Part shown: in pieces, positions 3,993-21,968 of the stretch
How the letters are laid out: every line of letters begins with the position of its first letter
Numbering within the stretch: position 1 is the first letter of the stretch
Virus record (IMG/VR): IMGVR_UViG_3300020159_003234
Span: 1-22,362 of that record
DNA length: 22,362 bases
Strand: one strand, 5' to 3'
Source of the DNA: a virus
Program-made: the position numbers and the translations under genes
The notes under the pieces: model-generated
Databases searched by the model: none
What the model saw: only the letters and a program-made list of their open reading frames with translations
Told to the model about the DNA's origin: nothing

Positions 3993-6900
3993 TTATCCTA
4001 CTTGTGTGAGAGTTGCTTCCATTCCATTATTCTTATTTACACCACCACCAATGAATATATTTCCACCACCACCTGAACCAATAGGAACTGGAACTTCTAC
4101 AGGAACTTCTATGTAGACAATTTGTGGTTCTTGATTTGGGTTTTCATAATCAGTATATCCGGATATTGATTTAAGTTTTTCTATGATTGATGGTACTTTT
4201 GCTATTAGTTGAGTTTTGTTTTCAACACTGTTCAAATCCATCAATAAATCAATACCAAAAAGTTTTCTAGTATCAAAATCAATTACAACTTCTCCTTTAT
4301 GGAGATTATATACCCCCTCTTTTGTTATTTCTCCACCATGAAAACGAGAACCACTTAAGAATTTTTTAGGATCAATTGTTCCTTCAAAAGATCCTGATCT
4401 AGTTGCTTTACCTTTTCTTATTTCATAGTGAAAAACACCAGTTTGATCAGTTCCTTGTTGAACACGAGTTCCCGCAGACACTGTTTGTCCCAATCTCACC
4501 AAGTTACTTGTTCCTTCTGCAATTCTTTCGGTAATACCAAGACTTCTATTGTAAATATCAACAACATTACCATATCCACCTCCTGCATTTGCAGAATATA
4601 TAACTTCTCCGCCTATACGACTGTAAAAAGTTCCATTATTTGGAGCATCATAATCTTGTCCAGCGTGTTTCCTTGCTCCACCACCTCTACTATCTCCATA
4701 ATTTTGCCCTTTCATAGTTCCAGTTGGCGGAAGAGGGGGAAGACCGCTTTGATTAACTGAACCAGAACCACCAGTTGATGATACTGAGATATTTCCGAGA
4801 TTTGGTGCTTGTGCTGGACTTGGGTTTTTCTTACCATAAGCAATTGCACCTGGACCAACGTACCATCCATATAAATGCCCATGTCTTTCTTTATATCCAA
4901 AACCACCAGGATACTTATTAGCGGCGGTGGGTGTTGCAAAATCAGTTCTACCACCAACAAATTCTGCAGAATTCTTTCGCAACTGAGCATTTCTTATATT
5001 GGCGGCAGTATCCTCAATCATTTTTGCGGCATTTCTTCCTCTAGGGTGAGCAGATAATGCTTGTATAGCAGTTTGTTTATCTATAATTTTTGACCAGATA
5101 TCGTATCCACCACGGGTTTCTCTTACTGGTTGAAATTGACCTCGTGCTAATATATGACCTTTAATTGTATGATTACTACCCTGTCCAAAATTTGATCTTG
5201 AAGCAACTCTGTTATATACTGCTTGTGCAACATCTGCCTGTCCTTGCGAATTGCTGCTTTCCAAAGATGCAACTGCGGCCAAAGACCAAAAGTCCGCATT
5301 TCCTCCAGATATTCTTGCCCCACTTCCAGAACCAGGTTCCGTCATTTCCATAGCAGTTTCTAAAGACATTTGTGCTAAAGGTGACCCTGTGGTTTTACTA
5401 ATAACTTTACCAGAAGAATCTACAGTTGCGCCTGCCTTTAATTTTTTAAAATAACTTTTAATCATTTTGCGAAGTTTATTCCCACCACTATTCATTGGAT
5501 CAGATTGTCTTAATTTATCTAAATCCCATCTTTGTGGTGCTCCGGGCAAAATGCCAGATTTTGTTGCATATCTTTCCCATTCACCATGAGTCCTGACATT
5601 TTTTTCAATAGTAGATTCATCCCACCCCCAAGCAACAGCCAATCTAGCCGCCTCAAGAGCCATTGCACTTACTTGTGCAGAGGTTGGAGGAAATGATCCA
5701 AATTTATTTTCATTGACTCCTTTACCTCCCATAGCAGCAATTGATAATCCCACGGAGTTTGTATTAGCACCAGCAGTATGTTCAGTTCCATCTACACCAT
5801 AACCTCTATTTCTTACAGCTCTGCCATTTCCCAGAAAAGTTGTATGATAATTATTAAAATTTTTACTATGATCACTGGCAGTCCAATGTAAAAATATTTT
5901 TCTAGTTTTATCTCCTTTACCGGGATTAAATCCTGAAGTTGCTTGAACAGCAGGACCTGGTGTTCCGTGAGGAGAATCATCATAACCTCCACCTTCGCCA
6001 CCATCACCTCCACCACCTCCAGTGCCTTTTCGGGTATTTTCTTGAGTCATCTCATCTTTACCAACAGGTCGCCTTAAAGACAACTCATCCTTTAAATTAC
6101 GAATAGTTGTATCAATTTCTTTGGAAACAGAGTCCTCAACTGATTTTGCTATTACTTGGGTATAATCTTCACCACCAAAAAATTGCTTAGCATCTACTTC
6201 ACCGCCACCAGCAAATCCAAGTGGTCCGGTTTTAAATACGCCTTGCATCCAAGAATTTAATCCTTGTCCAACTTTTAGATAATCTAGTTTATTTGGTTTA
6301 TCACCCAATACTGACTTTAATGCAAGAGTAAAAAATGGACCAAAGAAATTAGATTTTCCTAGAACATCATTACTCTCTATTAAAAATTCTTGAGGATTTG
6401 AAACTTTTTCTGTAGGTTTTTTTGGTTGTTCTGCCGGTTGATTTGGTTTATTGCCAAACAATCCAAAAGGATCCCACCAGTTTTTTTCTGGATTTGGAAA
6501 TACTGATTGAACTTTATCTTCACCTCCAGCACTCTTTCCTGGTTTTATTTTTGATGGGATAATAGATAAAAATCTTGTTGATTTCTTTTTCTTTTTTAGT
6601 GTTCTTGTCGAAGCAGGACTAACAGATTTACCTCTTCGCGTAGAAGGTATTGGTGATCCTCCTCCTGCAAGTTTATTTGTCTTTCCTTGTTTTTGAGTTG
6701 GTTTTTTACCTCCAAAAAATAAATCATAAAGAGCACCACCAGCCATATCACCAGCAGTTCCACCAATTATACCCCCAATAATATTTCCGGCAATAGGAAC
6801 CACTGAACCAACAGCAGCACCAACAGCACCCAATAATCCAGCACCAATTGATCTAAACGCAGCCTTTCCTACATTTTCTCCAAGAGCAACTGATAAACCA

Positions 6901-7904
6901 AAATCAATTAGAGCGCCGATAACAGGTAGAGGTATTCTTTTTAAAAATGGCCGAACCGATGAGAGTAATGCTCTATTTCCACCACCGCCACCCAGAGTGA
7001 CTCTTGGTTTTGCTCTCAATGGATTTCTTATATCAGGTATACCTGCACCGCCACCACCACTTGTAGTTACTCCAGGTCTCTGACGTAATGGATTTCTTAT
7101 ATCAGGTCTACCTGAACCTCCACCACCACTTGTAGTTACTTTAGGTCTTCCACCTTGTCCAGGTTTTACACCAGAACCAGGTTTTGCACCCGTGCCAGGT
7201 TTTACACTAGAACCAGGTTTTTTACCCAGTCCACCAGATCCTGCAGCGACTAATCCAGCAATAATTGCTAAATTTAAAAATTTATTTAATACCCCAGAAA
7301 GTTGATCAAATTGCTTAACACCATTTTCACCAAAAATATTTTTAATAAATCCACGAGTTGCATCATATGCCTTGTATCCCCAATCAATAAAAGTTACTAA
7401 TCCGTCTAAAAGTTTTCCACCAATGTCAGTAATAAAATCGGTAACTTTAATAATAACCGGAAGTATTTTTAGAAGTTGAGGAAGAAAATCTATTAGACGA
7501 ACAGCAATAAATCCGAGAACAGTTTGAGTAATAAAGTTTTTAATCCAATCCAAAAATCCCATTTTAGGAGGAGTTGGTAAATTTACTCCTTTTTGTTTCT
7601 TTGGTTTTTTCTTTTCTAATTCTTTTTCTCTATCCTCAAATTCTTTTTGTTCTCCTTTGATTCTTACTTTTTTTTGTTGCTTCTTTTTGAGAGCAAAAGA
7701 ATCCTTTAAAAGTTTATCAATCTTTATAACTTTCTTTTCTATTTGTAAAATAATATCTTCAGAAGGATCTTTAGATTGTTTTGGTTTAACTGAATTTGCA
7801 TTTACTTTTGTTGATTTTGTATTAAGGAACTTATCTGCTTTAATGATTGCAGATTTCTGAGATTTAATTATAGGTGATTTTGTATATGGTACTAGATTTG
7901 CCAT
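3993..7904 (-). CDS. Giant tail protein with amidase, SleB-like and degenerate M23 domains
   Basis: 1303 residues. The N-terminus (1-105) is Lys-rich and coiled-coil-like. Residues 117-141 form an amphipathic segment shared with the neighbouring 1165-residue protein. Pro/Gly repeats lie at 227-305 and a Gly/Ala hydrophobic stretch at 325-395. Three hydrolase-type domains follow. Amidase_2 spans about 665-800: H673 in KIFLHWTA, H709 in EHTAG with NTNSVGLSI, H773 in THGEW and D794 in RWDL look like the metal site. A SleB/CwlJ-type domain spans about 868-1030: LAAVASLESSNSQGQ with candidate catalytic E882, then DVAQAVYNRV and GQFQPV. An M23-type domain spans about 1066-1184: H1080, D1084 and H1159 are kept, but the two usual catalytic histidines appear replaced. 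The C-terminus has GGEITKEGVYNLHKGEVVID, a motif style seen at the ends of tail proteins. The likely role is local cell-wall digestion during DNA injection. It precedes gp27 with one base between. Confidence 0.8.
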   Translation of the reverse strand: MANLVPYTKSPIIKSQKSAIIKADKFLNTKSTKVNANSVKPKQSKDPSEDIILQIEKKVIKIDKLLKDSFALKKKQQKKVRIKGEQKEFEDREKELEKKKPKKQKGVNLPTPPKMGFLDWIKNFITQTVLGFIAVRLIDFLPQLLKILPVIIKVTDFITDIGGKLLDGLVTFIDWGYKAYDATRGFIKNIFGENGVKQFDQLSGVLNKFLNLAIIAGLVAAGSGGLGKKPGSSVKPGTGAKPGSGVKPGQGGRPKVTTSGGGGSGRPDIRNPLRQRPGVTTSGGGGAGIPDIRNPLRAKPRVTLGGGGGNRALLSSVRPFLKRIPLPVIGALIDFGLSVALGENVGKAAFRSIGAGLLGAVGAAVGSVVPIAGNIIGGIIGGTAGDMAGGALYDLFFGGKKPTQKQGKTNKLAGGGSPIPSTRRGKSVSPASTRTLKKKKKSTRFLSIIPSKIKPGKSAGGEDKVQSVFPNPEKNWWDPFGLFGNKPNQPAEQPKKPTEKVSNPQEFLIESNDVLGKSNFFGPFFTLALKSVLGDKPNKLDYLKVGQGLNSWMQGVFKTGPLGFAGGGEVDAKQFFGGEDYTQVIAKSVEDSVSKEIDTTIRNLKDELSLRRPVGKDEMTQENTRKGTGGGGGDGGEGGGYDDSPHGTPGPAVQATSGFNPGKGDKTRKIFLHWTASDHSKNFNNYHTTFLGNGRAVRNRGYGVDGTEHTAGANTNSVGLSIAAMGGKGVNENKFGSFPPTSAQVSAMALEAARLAVAWGWDESTIEKNVRTHGEWERYATKSGILPGAPQRWDLDKLRQSDPMNSGGNKLRKMIKSYFKKLKAGATVDSSGKVISKTTGSPLAQMSLETAMEMTEPGSGSGARISGGNADFWSLAAVASLESSNSQGQADVAQAVYNRVASRSNFGQGSNHTIKGHILARGQFQPVRETRGGYDIWSKIIDKQTAIQALSAHPRGRNAAKMIEDTAANIRNAQLRKNSAEFVGGRTDFATPTAANKYPGGFGYKERHGHLYGWYVGPGAIAYGKKNPSPAQAPNLGNISVSSTGGSGSVNQSGLPPLPPTGTMKGQNYGDSRGGGARKHAGQDYDAPNNGTFYSRIGGEVIYSANAGGGYGNVVDIYNRSLGITERIAEGTSNLVRLGQTVSAGTRVQQGTDQTGVFHYEIRKGKATRSGSFEGTIDPKKFLSGSRFHGGEITKEGVYNLHKGEVVIDFDTRKLFGIDLLMDLNSVENKTQLIAKVPSIIEKLKSISGYTDYENPNQEPQIVYIEVPVEVPVPIGSGGGGNIFIGGGVNKNNGMEATLTQVG
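4353..4709 (-). other. Degenerate M23 peptidase domain (coding segment)
   Basis: Segment encoding residues about 1066-1184 of the 1303-residue protein. It has HAGQDYDAPNNGT (metal-binding H and D) and GVFHYEIR where active enzymes have HLHFE. Only the second, metal-binding His remains. The usual YAHL motif reads IAEG. The metal ligands are therefore kept while both catalytic histidines seem lost. The alignment was made by eye. Confidence 0.6.
6988..7228 (-). repeat. Gly/Pro linker repeats within the hydrolase protein
   Basis: Residues about 227-305. First come several (K)PG(S/T)G units (GKKPGSSVKPGTGAKPGSG). Then there are two near-identical units of about 23 residues, each with VTTSGGGG and PDIRNPLR, followed by a partial third (VTLGGGGG). 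Direct repeats are visible in the DNA around 7015-7145. They look like a flexible, expandable linker. Confidence 0.75.
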
Positions 7905-7910
7905 TTCTTA

Positions 7911-10900
7911 TTATCTCATAATCCCAAGTGTTTCTTTGTGAGTACGAGTTCCTTTACTATGTTGTGCATTAAAAGATGGTGAGTTTGAACCTGATGATGG
8001 TTTTGATCCACTTCCTCTTCTTCCACTACCACCAGTACCAGCAACTATTGGTTTTGGTTTTGGTCTTGGTAAAGGTGTTATATTTGGTGTTCTTCTTCGT
8101 TGCGATGAAGATATGTTTGCGGCAGTATATCTTGGACTCATTGATGCCTTATATTTTTCAATATCTTCTTGTCTTCTAGTTAACTTGGGTTTGGGTTTGT
8201 TTCTATAATTCAAATCATTTTGAACATCTTTTAGATTTCCACCCATTTGTTTCATCATTCTTGCTTGAGCGTCAGGTGCCATACCTTGCTTTTGAAATCC
8301 TTCCAAAGAATTAACCATTGCTTCTTTGTGCTTTTGTCTCGCAAGTTTTGCATCATTGTCTTTATATGCACCTGGATTAATTGATCTACCTAGTCTTTCG
8401 AAAATATTTGATGTCCCTTGTCCTGGTTGAGCACCTTTCACATAAACAATTTTTCCATTCTTCAATGCTTTATGCCCAACAAATGGTCTTCCCTTATCAT
8501 CAGTCATAATTTGAGTTTTTGGTGCATCTTTAAATGATTGTTCTTTTAGTCCATAACCACCTTTAATTCCCCCTCCCTGATATGCACTAGAACCAATTCC
8601 TTCTAAAATTGCTCTTGCATTCTTTGATAATTTTTTAGAAGAACTTTCTTTTCCCATTCCAATAATAGAATCAAATACCCCACCAAATCCCTTTTGCCAC
8701 CGTTCCTCCCTTTCAATCACACCTTTCAATCTTTGTATGTAATTTTCTTTTTTATCTCCGGTTAATTTTTCACCTTCATCAATTTTATTTGCAATAATCA
8801 TTGCATTAACTTTATCAAATCCCCTTTCCATCAAATAATTTGCAAGCAGTTCTACACCTGCAGATTTAAGTCCTCCCACTAATGTTGACCCTCCAATACC
8901 ACGAAGACCTCCACCAATACGAGGACTATTAGGTTTCATAGTTCCAGATTGTCCTGCAAATCTTTGAAGTTCTGGAAAATTTTGCATTCCTGGTCCAGTT
9001 GCTCTAAGAGTTGCCCCCGGTCTGTATCTATTAAATGATGAATTTGAATTAATTTTTGGCGTAGATCTAGAAGCATCTAATTGACTTCTATCAAATACGG
9101 ATTGATCATTTATTCCCAATAATCTTTTTTCGACATCAGTCCAATTTCCAATTGGATTAGAATTAATCGGACTTCTAGAAAAATAGTTTTCAGGTAATGC
9201 ACTTGATTGTCCTCTTAAGAAATAACTTGGAGAAAGTTCTGATGCAAATGTAGGTATTTTTGGTTTTAATGTTGATGTTGGTGTATTTAGTTTTGGTGTT
9301 GGATTTGGTCTATTTAATTTTAGTGTTGGTTTTGGTGTATTTAATTTTGGAAGATTTTCTGCGTATCTTGGTGCAGTTTTTGCATCAAGGTCATATCGTT
9401 TTGATAAATCATCTAATCCCGATGCCGATCTGGAACTTTGAGTGAATGATTGAGGTCTTTTGATCGCATCCCTCATCTTATCTAATATTCCTTTTGCTCC
9501 GGGATTATCACCATCTATAGCACCACCCTGAAAAGCATCAAAATCTTTAGTTCCTATAATGTTATCAAATTTAGGATAACCATGAGTTTTAAATGACTTG
9601 TATATTTCATCTGCCGGAATTTTAAGAGTTCCAGAAAATCTATCAGCAAACTTACGCATAGAAGCATCACTTACCTGCCCAGGAGAATAATAAGGAACAT
9701 TCCCAACCAATCCACCACCAGTATGAGGAACACCAGAAATCATTTTTTCTGCCATATCTTTAAGAGGATTTTTAAATCCCTTAATTATTTGGCTGTCTAT
9801 ATTGGTTGATTCTATATCAGGCAGAGAATTATAGTATTTTGAAATTTCGGAAATTTGTTTATTAGTGAGTTTAGATATTAAATCTTTACCAAGTTTATAT
9901 TCATATGCTTTACGCAATTTAATTTCTTTTGGCGTTTCACCAATCAAACCACCACCAACAGCATAAGTCTTACCACCCATAATCTTGGGTTTATTAGTTC
10001 CTCCACCAGCAGCGTTCATTGATTCAAGAGTATCCACACCATACTTCTGTACGGCACCAGTGGACATCACAAATTCACCATCAGTAAGCATCGCAGGAAC
10101 TTTATCTACACCACTTTGACCACTTACAAATCCATTAAACATTTCTTGTGGTTTGCCGGATCCTAATGCAGCACCAGCAAGCATTCCCATAGGTCCAAAC
10201 ATTGAACCCATTCCTGCTCCCTTAAACATATTACCAAAGTTTGCAAATCCACCACCAGAAAATCCATAAGATTTAGTTTTTCCCGTTTCTAATAAAGAAA
10301 TTTGTTCGTCAATTTCAGATCCTTTTCCTTGAAGTTTTTCAAAAACATTTAAATTTGCTTTTTGTTGTTGAAGTGCTTTTATTTTATCTTCAGTACTTCC
10401 AGGTGCCTTCGTAGTTTTTCTTTCTTGTTCATTTACCGTACCAGGGAACATTGCTGGTATTGTTGCTCCTGCAGTAAAAAGAGCAATACCAGCCCCTAAA
10501 GGGGTTTTTATAAATTTTAAAAGTTGTGGTATTGCAACTTTTCCGATATGAAGGATAAACCTTCCAACCATACCAGTAGCACCACGAATAAATTTTCCAA
10601 AAGTTGTTCCAAATAAAACATAAGAACCAAGTAAAGCAGGCCACCAATCGCCTAAAAATCTTATAATTGCTTTTGCTTTTTCTTGATTTTTAGGATTAGC
10701 AAGCCAATCAAGTAATTTGATTACTATTCTACCAAGAATAACATTAGTAATAAAATTAACAATTCTATCCCATATTGATTGGAATGGTTTTGTAATTGCA
10801 GATAATGCTTTTTTAATTCCTTCAAATGGTTTTGATTCTAAATCAGTTTCTCTTTGACTTCTTCTTTTATTTTCAGCGTCTGTTCTCTGTCTGGTTGATT

Positions 10901-11408
10901 GTTCTCTATCAAAATTATTAATATTAGTTAAAGTTTCTAATATTGAATCAAGAATATCACTTATTCTTATTAATGGATCTACTTGCGAAGATTTATCAGG
11001 TGTTATATCTTTTACATTAACAGGTTCAACTCTAGGTGTATTAAAGAGTTTTTCTGTGGTGATTTTTCCAGATGGAGGTGCTTTTACGATTGTACTTGTT
11101 TTTGGTGGATCTTCGGGATTATTGGGTTCATTAGGACTAGGAGGAGGTGGTGAAGATACTTTAGTTTTTTTACTTTTTAATATTACAAATCTACCTTCTT
11201 TATTTCTAACTCTCTTAAACTCTTCTCTTAATAATATATCTTCTTCGGCAGGAATAAATGCCCCCACCATTCTTGAAGATGCTAATTTAATTTTTAATTT
11301 TTTAGCATAAATCTGATAATCCAGTTCCGTTCCAGTTTCTAACTTCAGTAACCTAAGAATTACCTCATCAATATTTTCTGTAGAAGTTTTTCCTGGATTA
11401 CTATCCAT
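7911..11408 (-). CDS. Giant tail protein, tape-measure candidate
   Basis: 1165 residues. The N-terminus (1-80) is a helical charged domain (NIDEVILRLLKLETG), followed by a Pro-rich linker (85-125) and a coiled-coil-like region (148-205). Residues 212-236 are an amphipathic/hydrophobic segment, 12 of 25 identical to residues 117-141 of the next gene's product, followed by further hydrophobic stretches to about 325. Residues 429-448 (SGQSGVDKVPAMLTDGEFVM) followed by AVQKYGVDTLESMN match a motif often found in tail tape-measure proteins. The rest is Gly/Pro/Ser-rich with a LNTPKPTLK-type repeat at 688-718 and basic C-terminal stretches. The gene lies directly after the gp26/gp51-like pair, the usual place of a tape-measure gene after its chaperones. 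Its ATG overlaps the end of the gp51-like gene by 8 bases (ATGGATAG). The length would suit a long tail, but the low-complexity sequence is unusual for a pure helical ruler. Confidence 0.7.
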   Translation of the reverse strand: MDSNPGKTSTENIDEVILRLLKLETGTELDYQIYAKKLKIKLASSRMVGAFIPAEEDILLREEFKRVRNKEGRFVILKSKKTKVSSPPPPSPNEPNNPEDPPKTSTIVKAPPSGKITTEKLFNTPRVEPVNVKDITPDKSSQVDPLIRISDILDSILETLTNINNFDREQSTRQRTDAENKRRSQRETDLESKPFEGIKKALSAITKPFQSIWDRIVNFITNVILGRIVIKLLDWLANPKNQEKAKAIIRFLGDWWPALLGSYVLFGTTFGKFIRGATGMVGRFILHIGKVAIPQLLKFIKTPLGAGIALFTAGATIPAMFPGTVNEQERKTTKAPGSTEDKIKALQQQKANLNVFEKLQGKGSEIDEQISLLETGKTKSYGFSGGGFANFGNMFKGAGMGSMFGPMGMLAGAALGSGKPQEMFNGFVSGQSGVDKVPAMLTDGEFVMSTGAVQKYGVDTLESMNAAGGGTNKPKIMGGKTYAVGGGLIGETPKEIKLRKAYEYKLGKDLISKLTNKQISEISKYYNSLPDIESTNIDSQIIKGFKNPLKDMAEKMISGVPHTGGGLVGNVPYYSPGQVSDASMRKFADRFSGTLKIPADEIYKSFKTHGYPKFDNIIGTKDFDAFQGGAIDGDNPGAKGILDKMRDAIKRPQSFTQSSRSASGLDDLSKRYDLDAKTAPRYAENLPKLNTPKPTLKLNRPNPTPKLNTPTSTLKPKIPTFASELSPSYFLRGQSSALPENYFSRSPINSNPIGNWTDVEKRLLGINDQSVFDRSQLDASRSTPKINSNSSFNRYRPGATLRATGPGMQNFPELQRFAGQSGTMKPNSPRIGGGLRGIGGSTLVGGLKSAGVELLANYLMERGFDKVNAMIIANKIDEGEKLTGDKKENYIQRLKGVIEREERWQKGFGGVFDSIIGMGKESSSKKLSKNARAILEGIGSSAYQGGGIKGGYGLKEQSFKDAPKTQIMTDDKGRPFVGHKALKNGKIVYVKGAQPGQGTSNIFERLGRSINPGAYKDNDAKLARQKHKEAMVNSLEGFQKQGMAPDAQARMMKQMGGNLKDVQNDLNYRNKPKPKLTRRQEDIEKYKASMSPRYTAANISSSQRRRTPNITPLPRPKPKPIVAGTGGSGRRGSGSKPSSGSNSPSFNAQHSKGTRTHKETLGIMR
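9255..9347 (-). repeat. Pro/Lys/Asn-rich imperfect repeat in the 1165-residue protein
   Basis: Residues about 688-718 contain three to four imperfect units of the form K-L-N-x-P-x-P-T-L-K (KLNTPKPTLK, KLNRPNPTPK, KLNTPTSTLK). The plus strand shows the matching T/G-rich direct repeats. It is probably an extended linker. Confidence 0.7.
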
Positions 11409-11571
11409 TACCCTGTAGTTTCTGTTTGGACTCTTCTTCTTCTATATGTTGCTTGAGAAGTTCAACATAAACATCTCTCTCCCAAGGTATCCAATTTTCA
11501 ATCTCTGTTAATGAATATTTATGGTACTGCATTAGTGAGAAATTTAATTTAAAATAACTCTCAAGATCCAT
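11401..11571 (-). CDS. gp51: gp51-like small protein, likely second part of a frameshifted tail assembly chaperone
   Basis: 56 residues from the ATG at 11571 (MDLESYFKLN). An in-frame ATG at 11580 gives 59. The 11571 ATG is preferred as a free start because AGGA lies 9 bases before it, while it directly touches the 11580 ATG. The protein has a helical N-terminus and IPWERDVYVELLKQHIEEEE, a Pro-Trp-Glu-Arg-x-x-Tyr pattern like that of the small second ORF of many phage tail assembly chaperones. In T4, gene 51 (hub assembly catalyst) follows gene 26, and the same order holds here. The reading frame stays open upstream across the end of gp26, and a slippery heptamer lies there, so the product may also be made as a gp26 fusion. 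Its 3' end overlaps the start of the tape-measure-like gene by 8 bases. Assignment to gp51 rests mainly on position. Confidence 0.65.
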   Translation of the reverse strand: MDLESYFKLNFSLMQYHKYSLTEIENWIPWERDVYVELLKQHIEEEESKQKLQGNG

Positions 11572-11582
11572 ATGAATCATTC

Positions 11583-12302
11583 CTAGGCGAAAAAACTTGA
11601 TAGACCCTCAAGAACTACTTCACTTTCAACTTCAGTATTTGGATTTTTTACTTTAATAGTATGAGATAACTTAGGCATAGTCTCAAAGAATTTTTCAATC
11701 TGTTTAAATTGAGAAGTATTCATTTGATCTAAGAAATCCATAAGTTCTTTCTTAGTTACATCAGCAGCTGCCCATACCTCATCTTCATTATAAATTTTAT
11801 CAACACAAGATGCAACAAGTTCAAATGATTGGTCAATTGCACTATTATTTGAAATATCAAAGTTATTCTTAATGAATTGTTCTAATGAAGGATATTTCAT
11901 TTCCATCATTAAAGTATCATCAAGTTTTATTCTATTTGTATGATCTTCGTTTGTTTGAACTTTAATATCATCAACATTAATTTTCACGGAAACACTGGTC
12001 TCTTCATCATCGGGGCAAATGATATTTACCTCAATTTCTTCTCCAACTGACTTGGCACGAATATTTAAAAACAAATATTCAATATCAAAGGTAGGAAGTG
12101 TTTCTACTTTAATTCCTTTAGTTTCAATGCAATTTTTAATGACTGTTTTGATCGCATTTGTAATCTGCTTAGTATCTTCTGATTCTAGTGCAATTACAAG
12201 AAGTTTTTCTTCTTTTACTAGAAACGGTCTAAACTTTATAGTTTGTTCAGTTGATGGCAACTCAAGTTCATAAGTTGGCGTGGCAATTCTGGGCAAAACC
12301 AT
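11583..12302 (-). CDS. gp26: gp26-like baseplate hub subunit (T4_baseplate family)
   Basis: 239 residues, close to T4 gp26 (208). It begins MVLPRIATPTYELELPST and has IKFRPFLVKEEKLLVIALES, a conserved signature of the gp26 family. Next come an Ile/Leu-rich helix, FDIEYLFLNIRAKSVGEEIE, a beta segment with acidic residues, and a helical C-terminus. In T4, gp26 is needed to assemble the central hub. Similar folds occur in phage tail assembly chaperones, which bind tape-measure proteins, and this gene lies just upstream of one with only the gp51-like ORF between. The last codons read AGT TTT TTC GCC TAG, so a T TTT TTC slippery heptamer sits two codons before the stop. A late promoter lies at 12333-12340. 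Confidence 0.85.
   Translation of the reverse strand: MVLPRIATPTYELELPSTEQTIKFRPFLVKEEKLLVIALESEDTKQITNAIKTVIKNCIETKGIKVETLPTFDIEYLFLNIRAKSVGEEIEVNIICPDDEETSVSVKINVDDIKVQTNEDHTNRIKLDDTLMMEMKYPSLEQFIKNNFDISNNSAIDQSFELVASCVDKIYNEDEVWAAADVTKKELMDFLDQMNTSQFKQIEKFFETMPKLSHTIKVKNPNTEVESEVVLEGLSSFFA
11589..11595 (-). other. Putative -1 programmed frameshift site (T TTT TTC)
   Basis: On the minus strand the gp26 reading frame ends AGT TTT TTC GCC TAG. The heptamer T TTT TTC fits the X XXY YYZ rule in the correct phase. A -1 slip continues as TTT TTT CGC CTA GGA ATG into the gp51-like frame, which is open. The product would be gp26 joined through Arg-Leu-Gly to the 59-codon ORF, about 300 residues. 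I see no strong stem-loop just downstream; only weak palindromes (CCTAGG, ATGATTCAT) are present. Confidence 0.55.
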
Positions 12303-12331: not shown

Positions 12332-13192
12332 TTATTTATAATCAATTTGAACCCTTAGATCAGTATCAATTCCCCTTGATCGTTGATAATTAGTTAACGG
12401 TCCGGAAGTAGTAATATAACCAGTAACTAAACATTTCCACAACTTAGAGTTTAATTGTTTAGAATAAGTTTCTCCAAGATTTTTTATATGACCAGTTTCA
12501 ACATTTTTCCTCCCAGATTTTCTCCCAATTTCTTGCTTTTCTTCTTTAGTAAATGCGTGTATTCCTGTTTTATTTTTATAGGCATTATTACCACTAGTTT
12601 TTCCACCCCTACTTCTTGCTTCATTTCTTTCACCTCCATCCATACCAAAAAGTCCCAATCCATTTTCAGAACACAATTTCCCATATTCTTTACCAAGTTT
12701 TTGTATATGACCAGTTTCAACATTTCTTTGTCCTAATCTTTTACCATTTTCTTTTCTTATTTCTGGAGAAAGTCCATATATTCCAATTCCCATTTTTTTT
12801 TGAGTTTCTCTACCCTTATTGCCATCTTTTATAATTTGCTCTCTTGTCCTTGAATGTATTCCTATCTTATTTTCAACTTGAGTTTTTGCTCCCTTTTTAC
12901 ACATTTCTGTTGAAACTATTCCACCGCAATTTTTATTTAAACAATATGGGTCATCAAGAAAAGGTTTAATTAACCTATTCTCCACTCTTCTACATTCTTC
13001 ATATCCTTCATTTGTATAATCAAATAACTCTAATATTTGTTTCTTTGGTGTATAAAGTTCCCAACACCATTTGTGAGTAACTGGAGATCCCATATAATAT
13101 TCATTATATTTCTTTTCTTTGTGACTACCATAATAATAATATGGAACTTCCTCAAAGGTAATCTTATATGTGTATATTCTTGAAGAATACAT
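12332..13192 (-). CDS. Free-standing GIY-YIG homing endonuclease with NUMOD3 repeats
   Basis: 286 residues. The N-terminal nuclease domain (about 5-95) has YTYKIT and YYYYGSHKE in place of GIY and YIG, then EYYMGSP, the likely catalytic Glu at E71 (RRVENRLIKPF), and DDPYCLNKNCGG. This pattern is common in phage GIY-YIG enzymes. After it come several NUMOD3-type DNA-binding repeats, recognised by GIH/GIYG followed by a helix and Gly-(K/R)-(K/R)-x-G (for example GIYGLSPEIRKENGKRLG and GIHAFTKEEKQEIGRKSG). NVETGHI occurs twice. The end resembles other phage endonucleases (TGYITTSGPL). Such enzymes cut a specific site in related phages lacking the gene, so that the gene is copied in by repair. 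It sits between gp54 and gp26, and its final codons contain the late promoter of gp26. It looks intact. Confidence 0.85.
   Translation of the reverse strand: MYSSRIYTYKITFEEVPYYYYGSHKEKKYNEYYMGSPVTHKWCWELYTPKKQILELFDYTNEGYEECRRVENRLIKPFLDDPYCLNKNCGGIVSTEMCKKGAKTQVENKIGIHSRTREQIIKDGNKGRETQKKMGIGIYGLSPEIRKENGKRLGQRNVETGHIQKLGKEYGKLCSENGLGLFGMDGGERNEARSRGGKTSGNNAYKNKTGIHAFTKEEKQEIGRKSGRKNVETGHIKNLGETYSKQLNSKLWKCLVTGYITTSGPLTNYQRSRGIDTDLRVQIDYK
12333..12340 (-). promoter_or_regulatory. T4-type late promoter of gp26
   Basis: Perfect TATAAATA on the minus strand, 31 bases before the gp26 ATG. It overlaps the last codons and stop of the homing endonuclease (GAT TAT AAA TAA), so the same bases serve as coding end and promoter. 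Confidence 0.75.
12485..12725 (-). repeat. Pair of 22-bp exact direct repeats inside the endonuclease gene
   Basis: The same 22 bases occur at 12485-12506 and 12704-12725. They encode the NVETGHI segment of two NUMOD3 repeat units (NVETGHIQKLGKEYGK and NVETGHIKNLGETYSK). Identity at DNA level beyond the protein suggests a fairly recent internal duplication or gene conversion. Confidence 0.8.
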
Positions 13193-13387: not shown

Positions 13388-13717
13388 ATGTCTATTCTTA
13401 AAAATGTTGGTTTTGTCGTGGCGGGACTAATTGGAGCAACTGCAATTCCTTCAATTGCATCAACAGCAACAGAAACCGTTACTCTTACTTCGGGACAAAT
13501 TGAATTTATTCGCAAACTAGACCAAGCATCGGGAAAAACAAATTTTCGTGGACTTGCTGAAAATCCTGCGGCAATTCCAATGATTAAATCTGCTACTGTT
13601 GCTTGCGGAAACATTGATCTTCAAAAACAAGCAGTTTATGCTGCAGGAGGAAATCAAATTCAAGCAAAATATGCTTCGTACAATTTTGAAACTCTATTTT
13701 GTAACAACAAAATCTGA
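13388..13717 (+). CDS. Small secreted protein in an early, moron-like cassette
   Basis: 109 residues. The N-terminus (MSILKNVGFVVAGLIGATAI) is a typical signal peptide: a Lys, a hydrophobic core, then PSIAS before TATETV, giving a likely signal peptidase I cut near residue 25. The mature part, about 85 residues, is mostly helical or mixed, with FIRKLDQASG and two cysteines (VACGN, TLFCNN) that could form a disulfide in the periplasm. It has its own perfect early promoter and a strong terminator just after it, and it runs against the genes on both sides. I do not recognise the family. Export with early expression suggests action on the host envelope, for example superinfection exclusion or inhibition of a periplasmic enzyme, but that is inference. 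The Shine-Dalgarno is weak. Confidence 0.8.
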   Translation: MSILKNVGFVVAGLIGATAIPSIASTATETVTLTSGQIEFIRKLDQASGKTNFRGLAENPAAIPMIKSATVACGNIDLQKQAVYAAGGNQIQAKYASYNFETLFCNNKI

Positions 13718-13771: not shown

Positions 13772-14647
13772 TTAAAATGCTCTAAAGTTACTACTAATAT
13801 TATCTAATTCTGCGTTTTGAAATACTCTTGTTGGATCATCACGACCAGCATCAAATACTGTGCCAAGAGAAATATTACCTTGACTTAATGCCACATTCGA
13901 ATTAAATCCAAGCTTTGAATTTATTTCTGCCAGTCCTTGCGGAGTTGTATCAAATGGCGATCTTGGTACTGTAGTGGCAGTTGATTGACCAGGTTGACCA
14001 GTTTTTCCTTGTAGATTTAATCCTTCAATCCAATAACGACTATAAGTAAATGAAACCGTACATTTAAGTAACTGTGAGGAGTCATAAGAAACTGGCATAG
14101 AATTAATACTAATTGGAAATGCTTTCACAAAATTATATCTTAATGAAGCACTCCCCTTTGCTTCTTGAGTACCATAAGATCTTTCAAACTTTGTAATAGA
14201 AAGGGCATCAGTAGTATAATCTTTTGAATAATTGACACGGTAATTATAATTTCTTCTTGCTGGATCATTTCCATATTGTTCATTCACCGCATATCCAATC
14301 CACGATTCAAAAAAATTAATTACATAATATTCTTCAGCGTCTACATAAAAACTAAAATCTGCCCTGTCATCATACAAGCGGCGATATGCATGTTTTTCAG
14401 TAACTCCTGTAAAATCATTATTAATATCGTGAGTCTGTAAGGAAGATCCTGGAAGAGACGCATCAGAACAAGCGAGAGATAATCTATCTGCTCTTTTTAT
14501 TGCAGTATTAGATATTCTTGATGATAAAAAACCATTTGCAGATTGTGGTGGTTGAAAGTCGCAAATATAATGAGAGGTTAATGCTGGTCTCAGTAACTTA
14601 GATTTTATTTCACTTAAAGTAACTCTACTTGGGCGAGGCGCAGCCAT
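13772..14647 (-). CDS. gp54: gp54-like baseplate tail tube initiator
   Basis: 291 residues (T4 gp54 has 320). It starts MAAPRPSRVTLSEIKSKLLR with LTSHYICDFQPP, followed by LACSDASLPGSSLQTHDIN, YDDRADFSFYVDAEEYYVINFFE and FVKAFPISINSMPVSYDSSQ, then a beta strand ending in FTYSRYW. This is the layout of tail-tube-like proteins: FxxSFYVD..YYVINFFE..W and a final beta-hairpin. gp54 sits on the baseplate with gp48 and seeds polymerisation of the tail tube. The C-terminal 90 residues are Gly/Thr/Asn-rich. A CATAAATA late box precedes it at 14674-14681, overlapping the start of the divergent gp4 gene. gp4, gp48 and gp53 are adjacent on the opposite strand. Confidence 0.8.
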   Translation of the reverse strand: MAAPRPSRVTLSEIKSKLLRPALTSHYICDFQPPQSANGFLSSRISNTAIKRADRLSLACSDASLPGSSLQTHDINNDFTGVTEKHAYRRLYDDRADFSFYVDAEEYYVINFFESWIGYAVNEQYGNDPARRNYNYRVNYSKDYTTDALSITKFERSYGTQEAKGSASLRYNFVKAFPISINSMPVSYDSSQLLKCTVSFTYSRYWIEGLNLQGKTGQPGQSTATTVPRSPFDTTPQGLAEINSKLGFNSNVALSQGNISLGTVFDAGRDDPTRVFQNAELDNISSNFRAF

Positions 14648-20129: not shown

Positions 20130-21968
20130 TTATATGTTAATATTTAAGGAATGTTTTGCAATTAAGTACTCTTTAACTAATCCGCTTCTACAAACATCTT
20201 CAATTCCAAATTCAATGAAATCAAATGATGGCATAATTTGAAGAATTTTTATAAAATCATGAATTCCATTTCTTTCATTCTGTCGTACCAAATCACTTTG
20301 AGAAGCATCACCACAGAACATAATCTTACAATTTTCACCAACACGAGTGATGATAGAATCGTTCTCATGTCCATTCATATTTTGGAATTCATCCACAATA
20401 AGAATACAATTGTCAAAAGTGGTTCCTCTTAGAAAAGAGGAAGACCAGAAAGAAATAGTACCTTGAGATTTCAGATTTCCATACAGCATCTCAAACTCAT
20501 CTTCAGATGGCAGTTGGAACATATATTTTACCATATTCTTATATGGTATTTCAAAGAGTGCGGATTTATCTTCGTGATTACCTGGCAAGAAACCAATTTC
20601 ACGAGTTTGCACTAAAGACCTAATGATATAAATTTTATCATAAGGTGTCTTTTCATTGAGAACATCTTTGAGTGCATTGTAAAGAACAATGAATGTATTA
20701 TGAGTGATAATATAATCATCGGTTATATAGAGATGTTTATTATCTTCAATCATAATACATTGCGCCTCTTCTTCTCCAACATAATTTACAGTTTTAATTT
20801 TTCTTCTATATTGAAGTTTATCGTATGTTTCTCTACAAAGATCTTTTTTTCTTTGTAAAGTAAAGAGGTCTTTTGGATTTCTTACAGTAATCCAGACATT
20901 ATAACATTTTTTACCTATTTTTTTAACTCCATCATACATATAAGTTGGAATTTTAGAAGTAATTTTGCAAATACCACCCAAAGACCAAATAATTTCCTGA
21001 ACCTGTTTTGCTAAAATTTCACTTGTTGTTGAAAATGATACTGTGCCATTTTTATGATCAACAGTTCCATCAGTATCCATCAATCCCTTCATAAGATTGA
21101 GTTTTTGTTCTGTTCCAGAATGAAGGTATATTGATGGAATAATTTTTTCATACGATTTTTTACCATGAATTCTAAGTTCCTTCAATACTTTGGTTAATGA
21201 ATTGAATTTATTTTTTCTTGATAAGGGATCTACGAAATTATAATCATAGTTGTTTCCGGTACAAGATTTTATTAATATATTTTCACCCATTACTTCTTGT
21301 AATTTATCCAATATTTGAGTATCTTTTGTTGAAAATTTAGGTGTACCTGTCGTTAAACATCCATCCCCAATTAAACATCCAATAAGATAAGGATCTATTG
21401 GAAGATCAATATTTTCAGTGTTAACAGGTTCAATTAAATCAATTGAAATATTAGTTGTTGATTTTCTAATTTCCTTTTCTTTCAAAAAATCAATAATATA
21501 TTGCGTATTAACAACTTTTTTAGAACCTTTTTTTCTTCTGCCCCATCCACTTGGAGCATTAATTTCCCAAAGATGTTCTAAACAACATCTAGTTTTTGAT
21601 CCGTCGTGAAAAATAATTTCGTAAATATGTTTTTTTCCTTGAGGAAAAATTCCACAAACCTTTGATTTTTTTCCAGTAGGAGTTAATACATATTCACCAA
21701 TTTTAATTTGACCCACAGTAGTCCAACCACTGGGAGTTAAAATTTTAGAATATAAAGGTTGAGCTTTACCAGTTCCAGCAGCTCCATAAGCAACAATGTG
21801 CTTACCTTCATCATAAGATTCAAATAGTTTTCCTTGATTATCTGTTAGAGGTTGAATATCTAAAAGTAAATCGGTGTTTAATGGTTTTCTACGCTTCATA
21901 TGTTTCGTAGTCATAGGAACACCACCAACAGACTGAGTATCCTGAGTAGTTCTTTTTCTTCTTGCCAT
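20130..21968 (-). CDS. phoH: PhoH-like P-loop ATPase interrupted by an intein
   Basis: 612 codons. Residues 1-68 and 425-612 are the host protein (256 residues after splicing, normal for a cyanophage PhoH), and residues 69-424 are an intein. The insertion lies exactly inside Walker A: AAGTGK (63-68) is joined after splicing to TFIVLYNAL (from T425). Walker B is CILIVDEFQN (D526, E527). Other PhoH-type segments are IYIIRSLVQTREIGFLPG, SFWSSSFLRGTTF and GENCKIMFCGDASQSD. PhoH-like proteins are ATPases widespread in marine phages; the phosphate link comes from E. coli, and the true phage role is not settled. The N-terminus is basic (MARRKRTT). The gene starts one base after the 80-residue gene and is followed at once by the exonuclease. 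Without splicing the ATPase could not bind ATP. Confidence 0.93.
   Translation of the reverse strand: MARRKRTTQDTQSVGGVPMTTKHMKRRKPLNTDLLLDIQPLTDNQGKLFESYDEGKHIVAYGAAGTGKAQPLYSKILTPSGWTTVGQIKIGEYVLTPTGKKSKVCGIFPQGKKHIYEIIFHDGSKTRCCLEHLWEINAPSGWGRRKKGSKKVVNTQYIIDFLKEKEIRKSTTNISIDLIEPVNTENIDLPIDPYLIGCLIGDGCLTTGTPKFSTKDTQILDKLQEVMGENILIKSCTGNNYDYNFVDPLSRKNKFNSLTKVLKELRIHGKKSYEKIIPSIYLHSGTEQKLNLMKGLMDTDGTVDHKNGTVSFSTTSEILAKQVQEIIWSLGGICKITSKIPTYMYDGVKKIGKKCYNVWITVRNPKDLFTLQRKKDLCRETYDKLQYRRKIKTVNYVGEEEAQCIMIEDNKHLYITDDYIITHNTFIVLYNALKDVLNEKTPYDKIYIIRSLVQTREIGFLPGNHEDKSALFEIPYKNMVKYMFQLPSEDEFEMLYGNLKSQGTISFWSSSFLRGTTFDNCILIVDEFQNMNGHENDSIITRVGENCKIMFCGDASQSDLVRQNERNGIHDFIKILQIMPSFDFIEFGIEDVCRSGLVKEYLIAKHSLNINI
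20697..21764 (-). mobile_element. Class 3-type intein with LAGLIDADG homing endonuclease in PhoH
   Basis: 356 residues (69-424 of the precursor). It begins with Ala69 (AQPLYSKILTPSGW), not Cys or Ser, and ends YIITHN before Thr425. The class 3 triplet is present: W134 in EHLW (block B, two residues after H132), C404 in EEEAQCIMIE (block F) and T422 in THN (block G). In class 3 inteins the block F Cys replaces the N-terminal nucleophile. An endonuclease domain lies between: PYLIGCLIGDG (D202) and LMKGLMDTDG (D300) are the two LAGLIDADG motifs, with LHSGTEQKLN before the second. All parts look intact, so it should both splice and home into intein-free phoH genes. The ATPase active site is a typical inteins' target because it is conserved and hard to lose. 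Confidence 0.9.

What the first reader, a model, noticed from the sequence alone, without database searches (positions are those of the whole stretch)
11401..11610. gp26 and the gp51-like ORF may be a G/GT-type frameshifted tail assembly chaperone
The last codons of gp26 are AGT TTT TTC GCC TAG. T TTT TTC is a canonical -1 slippery heptamer in the right phase. The -1 frame is open across the gp26 stop into the 59-codon ORF, giving a fusion of about 300 residues. The ORF contains IPWERDVYVELL, like the second part of many tail chaperones, and the next gene is the tape-measure candidate. This is the layout of lambda G/GT-H and many siphoviruses and myoviruses. I know of no report that T4-type gp26/gp51 is made this way. 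A free ATG with AGGA upstream also exists, so both forms may be produced.
Basis: partly seen in the sequence, partly recalled or inferred. Interest (0 to 1): 0.8.

Follow-up and report, generated by a model that had tools for sequence, protein, structure and literature searches.

The report
Frameshifted tail chaperone of T4-like cyanophage
This cyanophage very probably makes two versions of a tail-building helper protein from one gene by letting some ribosomes slip back one base at a T-run, a trick conserved in hundreds of T4-like phages and, in outline, already reported in 2022.

Summary
T TTT TTC lies in phase two codons before the gp26 stop (window 11595-11589, minus strand), and the -1 frame is open across the stop into the 59-codon ORF. 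In 294 distinct related loci the -1 frame is always open for at least 149 nt past the stop; the +1 frame never reaches 100 nt. All 273 loci outside the Ackermannviridae-like group keep an in-phase T6 run. In 41 of the 273 the downstream ORF has no start codon in its first 45 nt.

The 59-codon ORF is not a complete gp51. It is the C-terminal domain of a 300-aa protein that matches the gp26 family end to end. T4 gp51 is the same N+C protein as a separate gene. Ten sampled genomes with one gp26-family gene keep the frameshift layout; four with two copies have lost the heptamer. The gp26 model's N-domain resembles solved tail assembly chaperones.

This is a G/GT-type frameshifted chaperone. Vladimirov, Gautam and Davidson (Virology 2022) already described T4-like tail chaperones, so the kind is known. 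Possibly new: a constrained internal Shine-Dalgarno-like element and a clade-specific hairpin. No expression data were available.

The parts
11583..12302 (-). gp26 / TAC-N: tail assembly chaperone, short form (239 aa)
   Evidence: Pfam T4_baseplate PF12322, E 1.1e-76; phrog_150, E 2.6e-81; AF2 model pLDDT 86, residues 1-96 align with solved tail assembly chaperones 2OB9, 3FGX, 3KLU
11589..11595 (-). -1 slippery heptamer T TTT TTC
   Evidence: sequence; in-phase T6 in 273/273 distinct non-Ackermannviridae-type relatives; 0/10 sampled relatives with a stand-alone gp51 have TTTTTT in the last 60 nt of gp26, and T4's gp26 end lacks it
11401..11595 (-). -1 frame C-terminal domain (TAC-C); read as a fusion from the heptamer, 64 residues from FF, stop 11403-11401
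   Evidence: open in all 294 loci; conserved FFR[IVL][AGS][ML]...YY..NF...HKYSLTEIENM.PWERDIY; phrog_634, E 6.7e-29; aligns with T4 gp51 residues 204-244
11401..11580 (-). 59-codon ORF as annotated from its first ATG ('gp51-like'); a fragment of the fusion
   Evidence: 41/273 relatives have no ATG/GTG/TTG within 45 nt of the gp26 stop; strong ribosome-binding site at only 1 of 134 representative loci that have a candidate start
11605..11609 (-). internal Shine-Dalgarno-like GAGGG, 9 nt 5' of the heptamer; probable stimulator
   Evidence: anti-SD pairing peaks here across 167 representatives and exceeds synonymous-codon shuffles (-6.96 against -5.57, sd of mean 0.12)
11565..11578 (-). 5-bp hairpin GATTC-ATAT-GGATC, 10 nt 3' of the heptamer; possible stimulator, this clade only
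   Evidence: complete in 45/94 near-clade representatives, 0-2 in slid controls, absent from P-SSM2-like and syn9-like clades; Asp codon choice follows the pairing base, Fisher p 0.0017
7911..11408 (-). next gene (1165 aa), candidate tape measure protein; overlaps the 3' end of the -1 frame by 8 nt
   Evidence: only weak matches to tape-measure PHROGs, E 0.003-0.008; assignment is by gene order, inferred

Best explanation
This is the tail assembly chaperone gene of a T4-like cyanophage. Most ribosomes translate gp26 and stop, giving the short form (TAC-N). A minority slip back one base at T TTT TTC while decoding the two Phe codons and continue in the -1 frame, giving a 300-aa long form (TAC-NC) with the extra helical C-domain. 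By analogy with lambda gpG/gpGT, the shared N-domain would coat the tape measure protein and the C-domain of the rarer long form would recruit tube subunits, after which both leave. T4 reaches the same two products from two genes, 26 and 51. Shown here: the sequence signals, their conservation, the end-to-end family match and the natural control. Inferred: that slippage occurs and at what rate, the stimulators' action, and the chaperone function.
For: Open -1 frame in 294/294 loci and in-phase T6 in 273/273. Third-base invariance at the slip codons and T before them regardless of residue. 41/273 loci without any start codon in the first 45 nt. Between heptamer and gp26 stop, bases follow -1 frame constraint: the last 0-frame residue varies (A, G, V, S, E and others) while the -1 residues are R (142/155) and I/V/L (155/155); the gp26 stop is TAG in 115/167 although the -1 ORF's own stop is mostly TAA. 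Fusion matches phrog_150 over 1-286 with 304 bits against 274 for gp26 alone. T4 gp51 carries the whole T4_baseplate domain (residues 1-201) plus the C-domain. One-copy genomes (10/10) have the open -1 frame into the C-domain, with a T6 heptamer in all but the Ackermannviridae member; two-copy genomes (4/4) lack the heptamer. gp26 model: top three PDB alignments are tail assembly chaperones, Z 7.3-8.0, next 4.9. Internal SD-like element.
Against: No protein, ribosome-profiling or reporter data. T TTT TTC is not the strongest slip site in E. coli (from memory). The window itself has two ATGs after the stop, so some free C-domain could also be made. A structural Z of 8 is only moderate. The tape measure next door is not firmly identified, and the window is a 22-kb fragment, so absence of a second gp51 copy elsewhere in this phage could not be checked.
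Confidence: 0.95

Rival explanations
1. Separate translation: the 59-codon ORF is an independent small gene (gp51-like) started by re-initiation or coupling at its own ATG, and the heptamer is incidental.
For: An ATG lies within 18 nt after the gp26 stop in 191 of 273 loci; databases annotate it as a separate gene; in the window the ATG at 11571 has AGGA 9 nt upstream.
Against: 82 of 273 loci lack such an ATG and 41 lack any start codon within 45 nt. Ribosome-binding sites before the candidate starts are weak. The -1 frame is under coding constraint upstream of every ATG. It does not explain invariant third bases or loss of the heptamer where gp51 is a separate full-length gene.
Confidence: 0.03
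2. Transcriptional slippage: RNA polymerase adds or drops a U at the T6 run, so the fusion comes from edited mRNA rather than from ribosomal frameshifting.
For: The site is a homopolymer, and T7 runs occur in 11 of 273 loci.
Against: Six bases is short for efficient polymerase slippage (general knowledge). The run is almost always closed by C in phase, and an SD-like element at the ribosomal-stimulator distance is conserved beyond coding needs.
Confidence: 0.015
3. A real fusion gene broken by a sequencing or assembly error in a homopolymer.
For: Homopolymers are error-prone; some phages encode N+C as one ORF (T4 gp51).
Against: The same layout in 294 distinct loci and in independently sequenced named genomes, including syn9, P-SSM2 and phiM12.
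Confidence: 0.005

Closest known systems
T4-like tail assembly chaperones (Vladimirov, Gautam and Davidson, Virology 2022; paper not held, cited in PMC10885494 and PMC12846349)
   Same: Same protein family and genes: TAC-N is gp26, TAC-NC is gp51 in T4. From memory of its abstract, frameshifting is conserved in several T4-like groups and T4 uses separate genes.
   Different: Which cyanophages it lists could not be checked. The internal SD-like element and clade hairpin were measured here; whether that paper mentions them is unknown.
Phage lambda G/GT (Xu, Hendrix, Duda 2004; reviewed in PMC5009743)
   Same: Short chaperone plus rarer -1 frameshift extension, upstream of the tape measure gene; neither present in the virion of lambda.
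   Different: Slip site is T TTT TTC two codons before the stop; C-domain about 60 residues; sequence similarity to lambda G/GT was not tested; contractile-tailed T4-like phage.
Vandenendeviridae and Andersonviridae tail chaperone frameshift (phage Adele, PMC12846349)
   Same: Poly-T slip motif near the end of TAC-N and uninterrupted -1 frame through the locus.
   Different: Motif GTTTTT, different phage families, no TTTTTTC heptamer reported.
T4 genes 26 and 51
   Same: gp26 is the homologue of TAC-N (E 1.3e-18); gp51 has the same N+C architecture as the fusion.
   Different: Two divergently transcribed genes; heptamer lost (GAG TTC TTT GAG) although the two Phe residues remain.

Membership tests
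[quoted passage not shown]
   T TTT TTC at 11595-11589; conserved 273/273
G/GT-type frameshifted tail assembly chaperone | Open -1 frame across the stop encoding a conserved C-terminal domain | tested here: met
   294/294 loci open at least 149 nt; conserved domain
G/GT-type frameshifted tail assembly chaperone | First domain has a tail assembly chaperone fold | tested here: inconclusive
   AF2 model residues 1-96 align with HK97 gp13 2OB9 Z 8.0, 3FGX Z 8.0, YqbN 3KLU Z 7.3; next match 4.9. Foldseek alone ranks 2OB9 second at E 0.64. Points to yes; Z is moderate.
G/GT-type frameshifted tail assembly chaperone | Located directly upstream of the tape measure gene | tested here: inconclusive
   Next gene is a 1165-aa protein with only weak tape-measure PHROG matches
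G/GT-type frameshifted tail assembly chaperone | Both short and frameshifted products made, in a fixed low ratio | not testable with these tools
   needs proteomics or a reporter
G/GT-type frameshifted tail assembly chaperone | Both products needed for tail assembly, absent from the virion | not testable with these tools
   T4 gp26 and gp51 are listed as hub assembly chaperones in PMC3004832
T4 gp26/gp51 (PF12322, phrog_150) | Sequence membership | tested here: met
   PF12322 E 1.1e-76; fusion covers phrog_150 5-279 of 282

The most novel reading that the evidence does not exclude
The T4-like tail chaperone frameshift is a bipartite programmed signal: an internal Shine-Dalgarno-like element about 9 nt 5' of T TTT TTC, kept beyond what the protein needs and found in several T4-like families, plus clade-specific hairpins 3' of it. 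Duplication into separate 26 and 51 genes released T4's lineage from this constraint.
Probability: 0.6. Interest if true: 0.45.

Novelty: new member of a known kind. Interest (0 to 1): 0.35.

Why it matters
It corrects a widespread annotation error: the small 'gp51' or 'baseplate hub assembly catalyst' genes of cyanophages are C-terminal pieces of a frameshift product, not whole proteins. It ties T4's long-puzzling hub factors gp26 and gp51 to the lambda G/GT chaperone system. It also offers a clean natural experiment in which gene duplication replaces a programmed frameshift, with a measurable cis-acting signal.

Tried and rejected
RNAalifold on the pooled downstream regions gave no consensus structure; the hairpin was seen only on clade-specific inspection and is absent elsewhere, so it is treated as suggestive. 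It was noticed first and then tested on the same sequences. Folding the window site alone is not unusual (z -0.74). PDB sequence searches with gp26 and C-domain profiles gave only chance matches. The C-domain model (pLDDT 79, four helices) has no informative structural neighbour, which shows nothing either way. Some collection scans with divergent queries returned few or no loci. Vladimirov et al. 2022 could not be opened, so its content rests on later citations and memory.

Full report
Observation. gp26 (12302-11583, minus strand) ends AGT TTT TTC GCC TAG. T TTT TTC is in the X XXY YYZ phase and the -1 frame is open from upstream of it through the 59-codon ORF to a stop at 11403-11401. The fusion would be 300 residues.

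Conservation. Relatives were collected with internal gp26 peptide patterns, so the collection was not selected on the 3' end (one search found none). Of 294 distinct loci with enough downstream sequence, all have the -1 frame open at least 149 nt beyond the gp26 stop; the +1 frame never reaches 100 nt. An in-phase TTTTTT[C/T/G] is present in 273 of 273 loci that are not Ackermannviridae-like. The slip codons are TTT TTC in 261, and the preceding base is T in all, through Ser, Asn, Asp, Ala, Thr, Gly and His codons; elsewhere TTT is 73% of Phe codons. After thinning to 167 dissimilar representatives the pattern is the same. Related sequences are not independent, so the formal probabilities are only indicative. 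The 21 loci without T6 (Ackermannviridae members and their close relatives, plus Vibrio phage K369) keep the open -1 frame but have other sites such as A ATT TTC.

Coding across the stop. Before any start codon, bases between the heptamer and the gp26 stop behave as -1 frame codons. The last 0-frame residue is free to vary, while the -1 residues are Arg in 142 of 155 and Ile, Val or Leu in 155 of 155. gp26 ends with TAG in 115 of 167, although the -1 ORF's own stop is mostly TAA. In 41 of 273 loci the -1 frame has no ATG, GTG or TTG within 45 nt after the stop. Candidate starts, where present, mostly lack a good ribosome-binding site. The window does have two ATGs, so some free C-domain cannot be excluded.

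What the protein is. gp26 belongs to T4_baseplate PF12322 and phrog_150. The phrog_150 profile continues past gp26 into the C-domain, and the fusion matches it over residues 1-286 with 304 bits against 274 for gp26 alone. T4 gp51 contains the whole PF12322 domain (1-201) and, at 204-244, the C-domain. T4 gp51 is thus equivalent to the fusion, and cyanophage 'gp51' genes are its C-terminal fragment. AlphaFold2 models gp26 well (pLDDT 86). Its first 96 residues align with HK97 tail assembly chaperone gp13 (2OB9, Z 8.0, 4.0 A over 84 residues), 3FGX (8.0) and YqbN (3KLU, 7.3), with the next match at 4.9; Foldseek alone ranks 2OB9 second but without significance. That 3FGX and 3KLU are tail chaperone relatives is partly general knowledge; PMC9603447 discusses gp13 and YqbN together as TAC-family proteins.

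Natural control. A PF12322 search of 14 complete genomes found one copy in ten (cyanophages S-SM2, P-SSM2, syn9 and S-CRM01; phiM12, AsFcp_2, DLP6, PVA23, Maynard, P10VF) and two in four (T4, CC31, AB-Navy4, G37-3). The ten one-copy genomes all have the open -1 frame into the C-domain, nine with a T6 heptamer; the exception is Maynard of the Ackermannviridae. T4 and ten further phages with a separate full-length gp51 have no such heptamer. Seven of these eleven keep the two Phe residues but spell them TTC TTT or TTC TTC. This argues that the invariant spelling is not a coding need.

Possible stimulators. Pairing to the anti-Shine-Dalgarno sequence peaks just upstream of the heptamer (8-mers starting at -17 to -14). 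Across 167 representatives it is stronger than in synonymous-codon shuffles (-6.96 against -5.57, sd of the mean 0.12) and control windows (-1.76). In the window it is GAGGG at 11609-11605, 9 nt before the heptamer, a spacing like that known from E. coli dnaX (general knowledge). It lies too far from the downstream ATGs to serve them. S-CRM01, AsFcp_2, PVA23, P10VF and others have similar elements, some in different codons; it is weaker in syn9. Downstream sequence folds better than shuffles on average just 3' of the heptamer (mean z about -1.6) but not 30 nt further. In the window's clade this includes a 5-bp hairpin, complete in 45 of 94 representatives with linked base changes (Fisher p 0.0017), absent in two other clades. 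I treat the SD-like element as likely and the hairpin as suggestive.

Prior knowledge. A 2016 review described G-T frameshifting as conserved among long-tailed phages 'except T4' (PMC5009743). Vladimirov, Gautam and Davidson (Virology 2022) then identified T4-like tail assembly chaperones. PMC10885494 cites it for T4-like phages that carry one short and one fused long gene, and PMC12846349 cites it for poly-T frameshift signals in TAC-N genes of T4-like phages. The paper itself is not held; from memory its abstract says the frameshift is conserved in several T4-like groups and that T4 uses genes 26 and 51. Searches for cyanophage-specific reports found nothing further.

Verdict.

Noticed in passing
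window 20130-21968 (-): PhoH-like gene interrupted by an in-frame intein-like insert with a LAGLIDADG domain (residues about 58-430; PhoH match resumes at 424).
   Followed up: partly
window 12332-13192 (-): A homing-endonuclease-like gene (phrog_314) sits between the tail-tube-like gene (13772-14647) and gp26; in SynMITS9220M01 the corresponding two genes are adjacent without it.
   Followed up: partly
window 13388-13717 (+): A 109-aa ORF with a signal-peptide-like start, no Pfam or PHROG match, on the opposite strand next to the homing endonuclease.
   Followed up: no
window 3993-7904 (-): A 1303-aa protein with Peptidase_M23 and Hydrolase_2 (cell wall hydrolase) matches just below Pfam cut-offs, in the tape-measure neighbourhood.
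   Followed up: no
L088, L089, L091, L092 and L336-L353 (gp26 3' ends): Ackermannviridae-like loci and Vibrio phage K369 keep the open -1 frame but have sites such as A ATT TTC, A CTT TTC or G GCT TTC instead of T6; how they shift is unclear.
   Followed up: partly
PDB 5IR0 against the gp26 model: ORF19 of a Vibrio cholerae PICI-like element is the best non-chaperone match to the gp26 N-domain (Z 4.9); it might be a tail-chaperone-like protein of a phage satellite.
   Followed up: no
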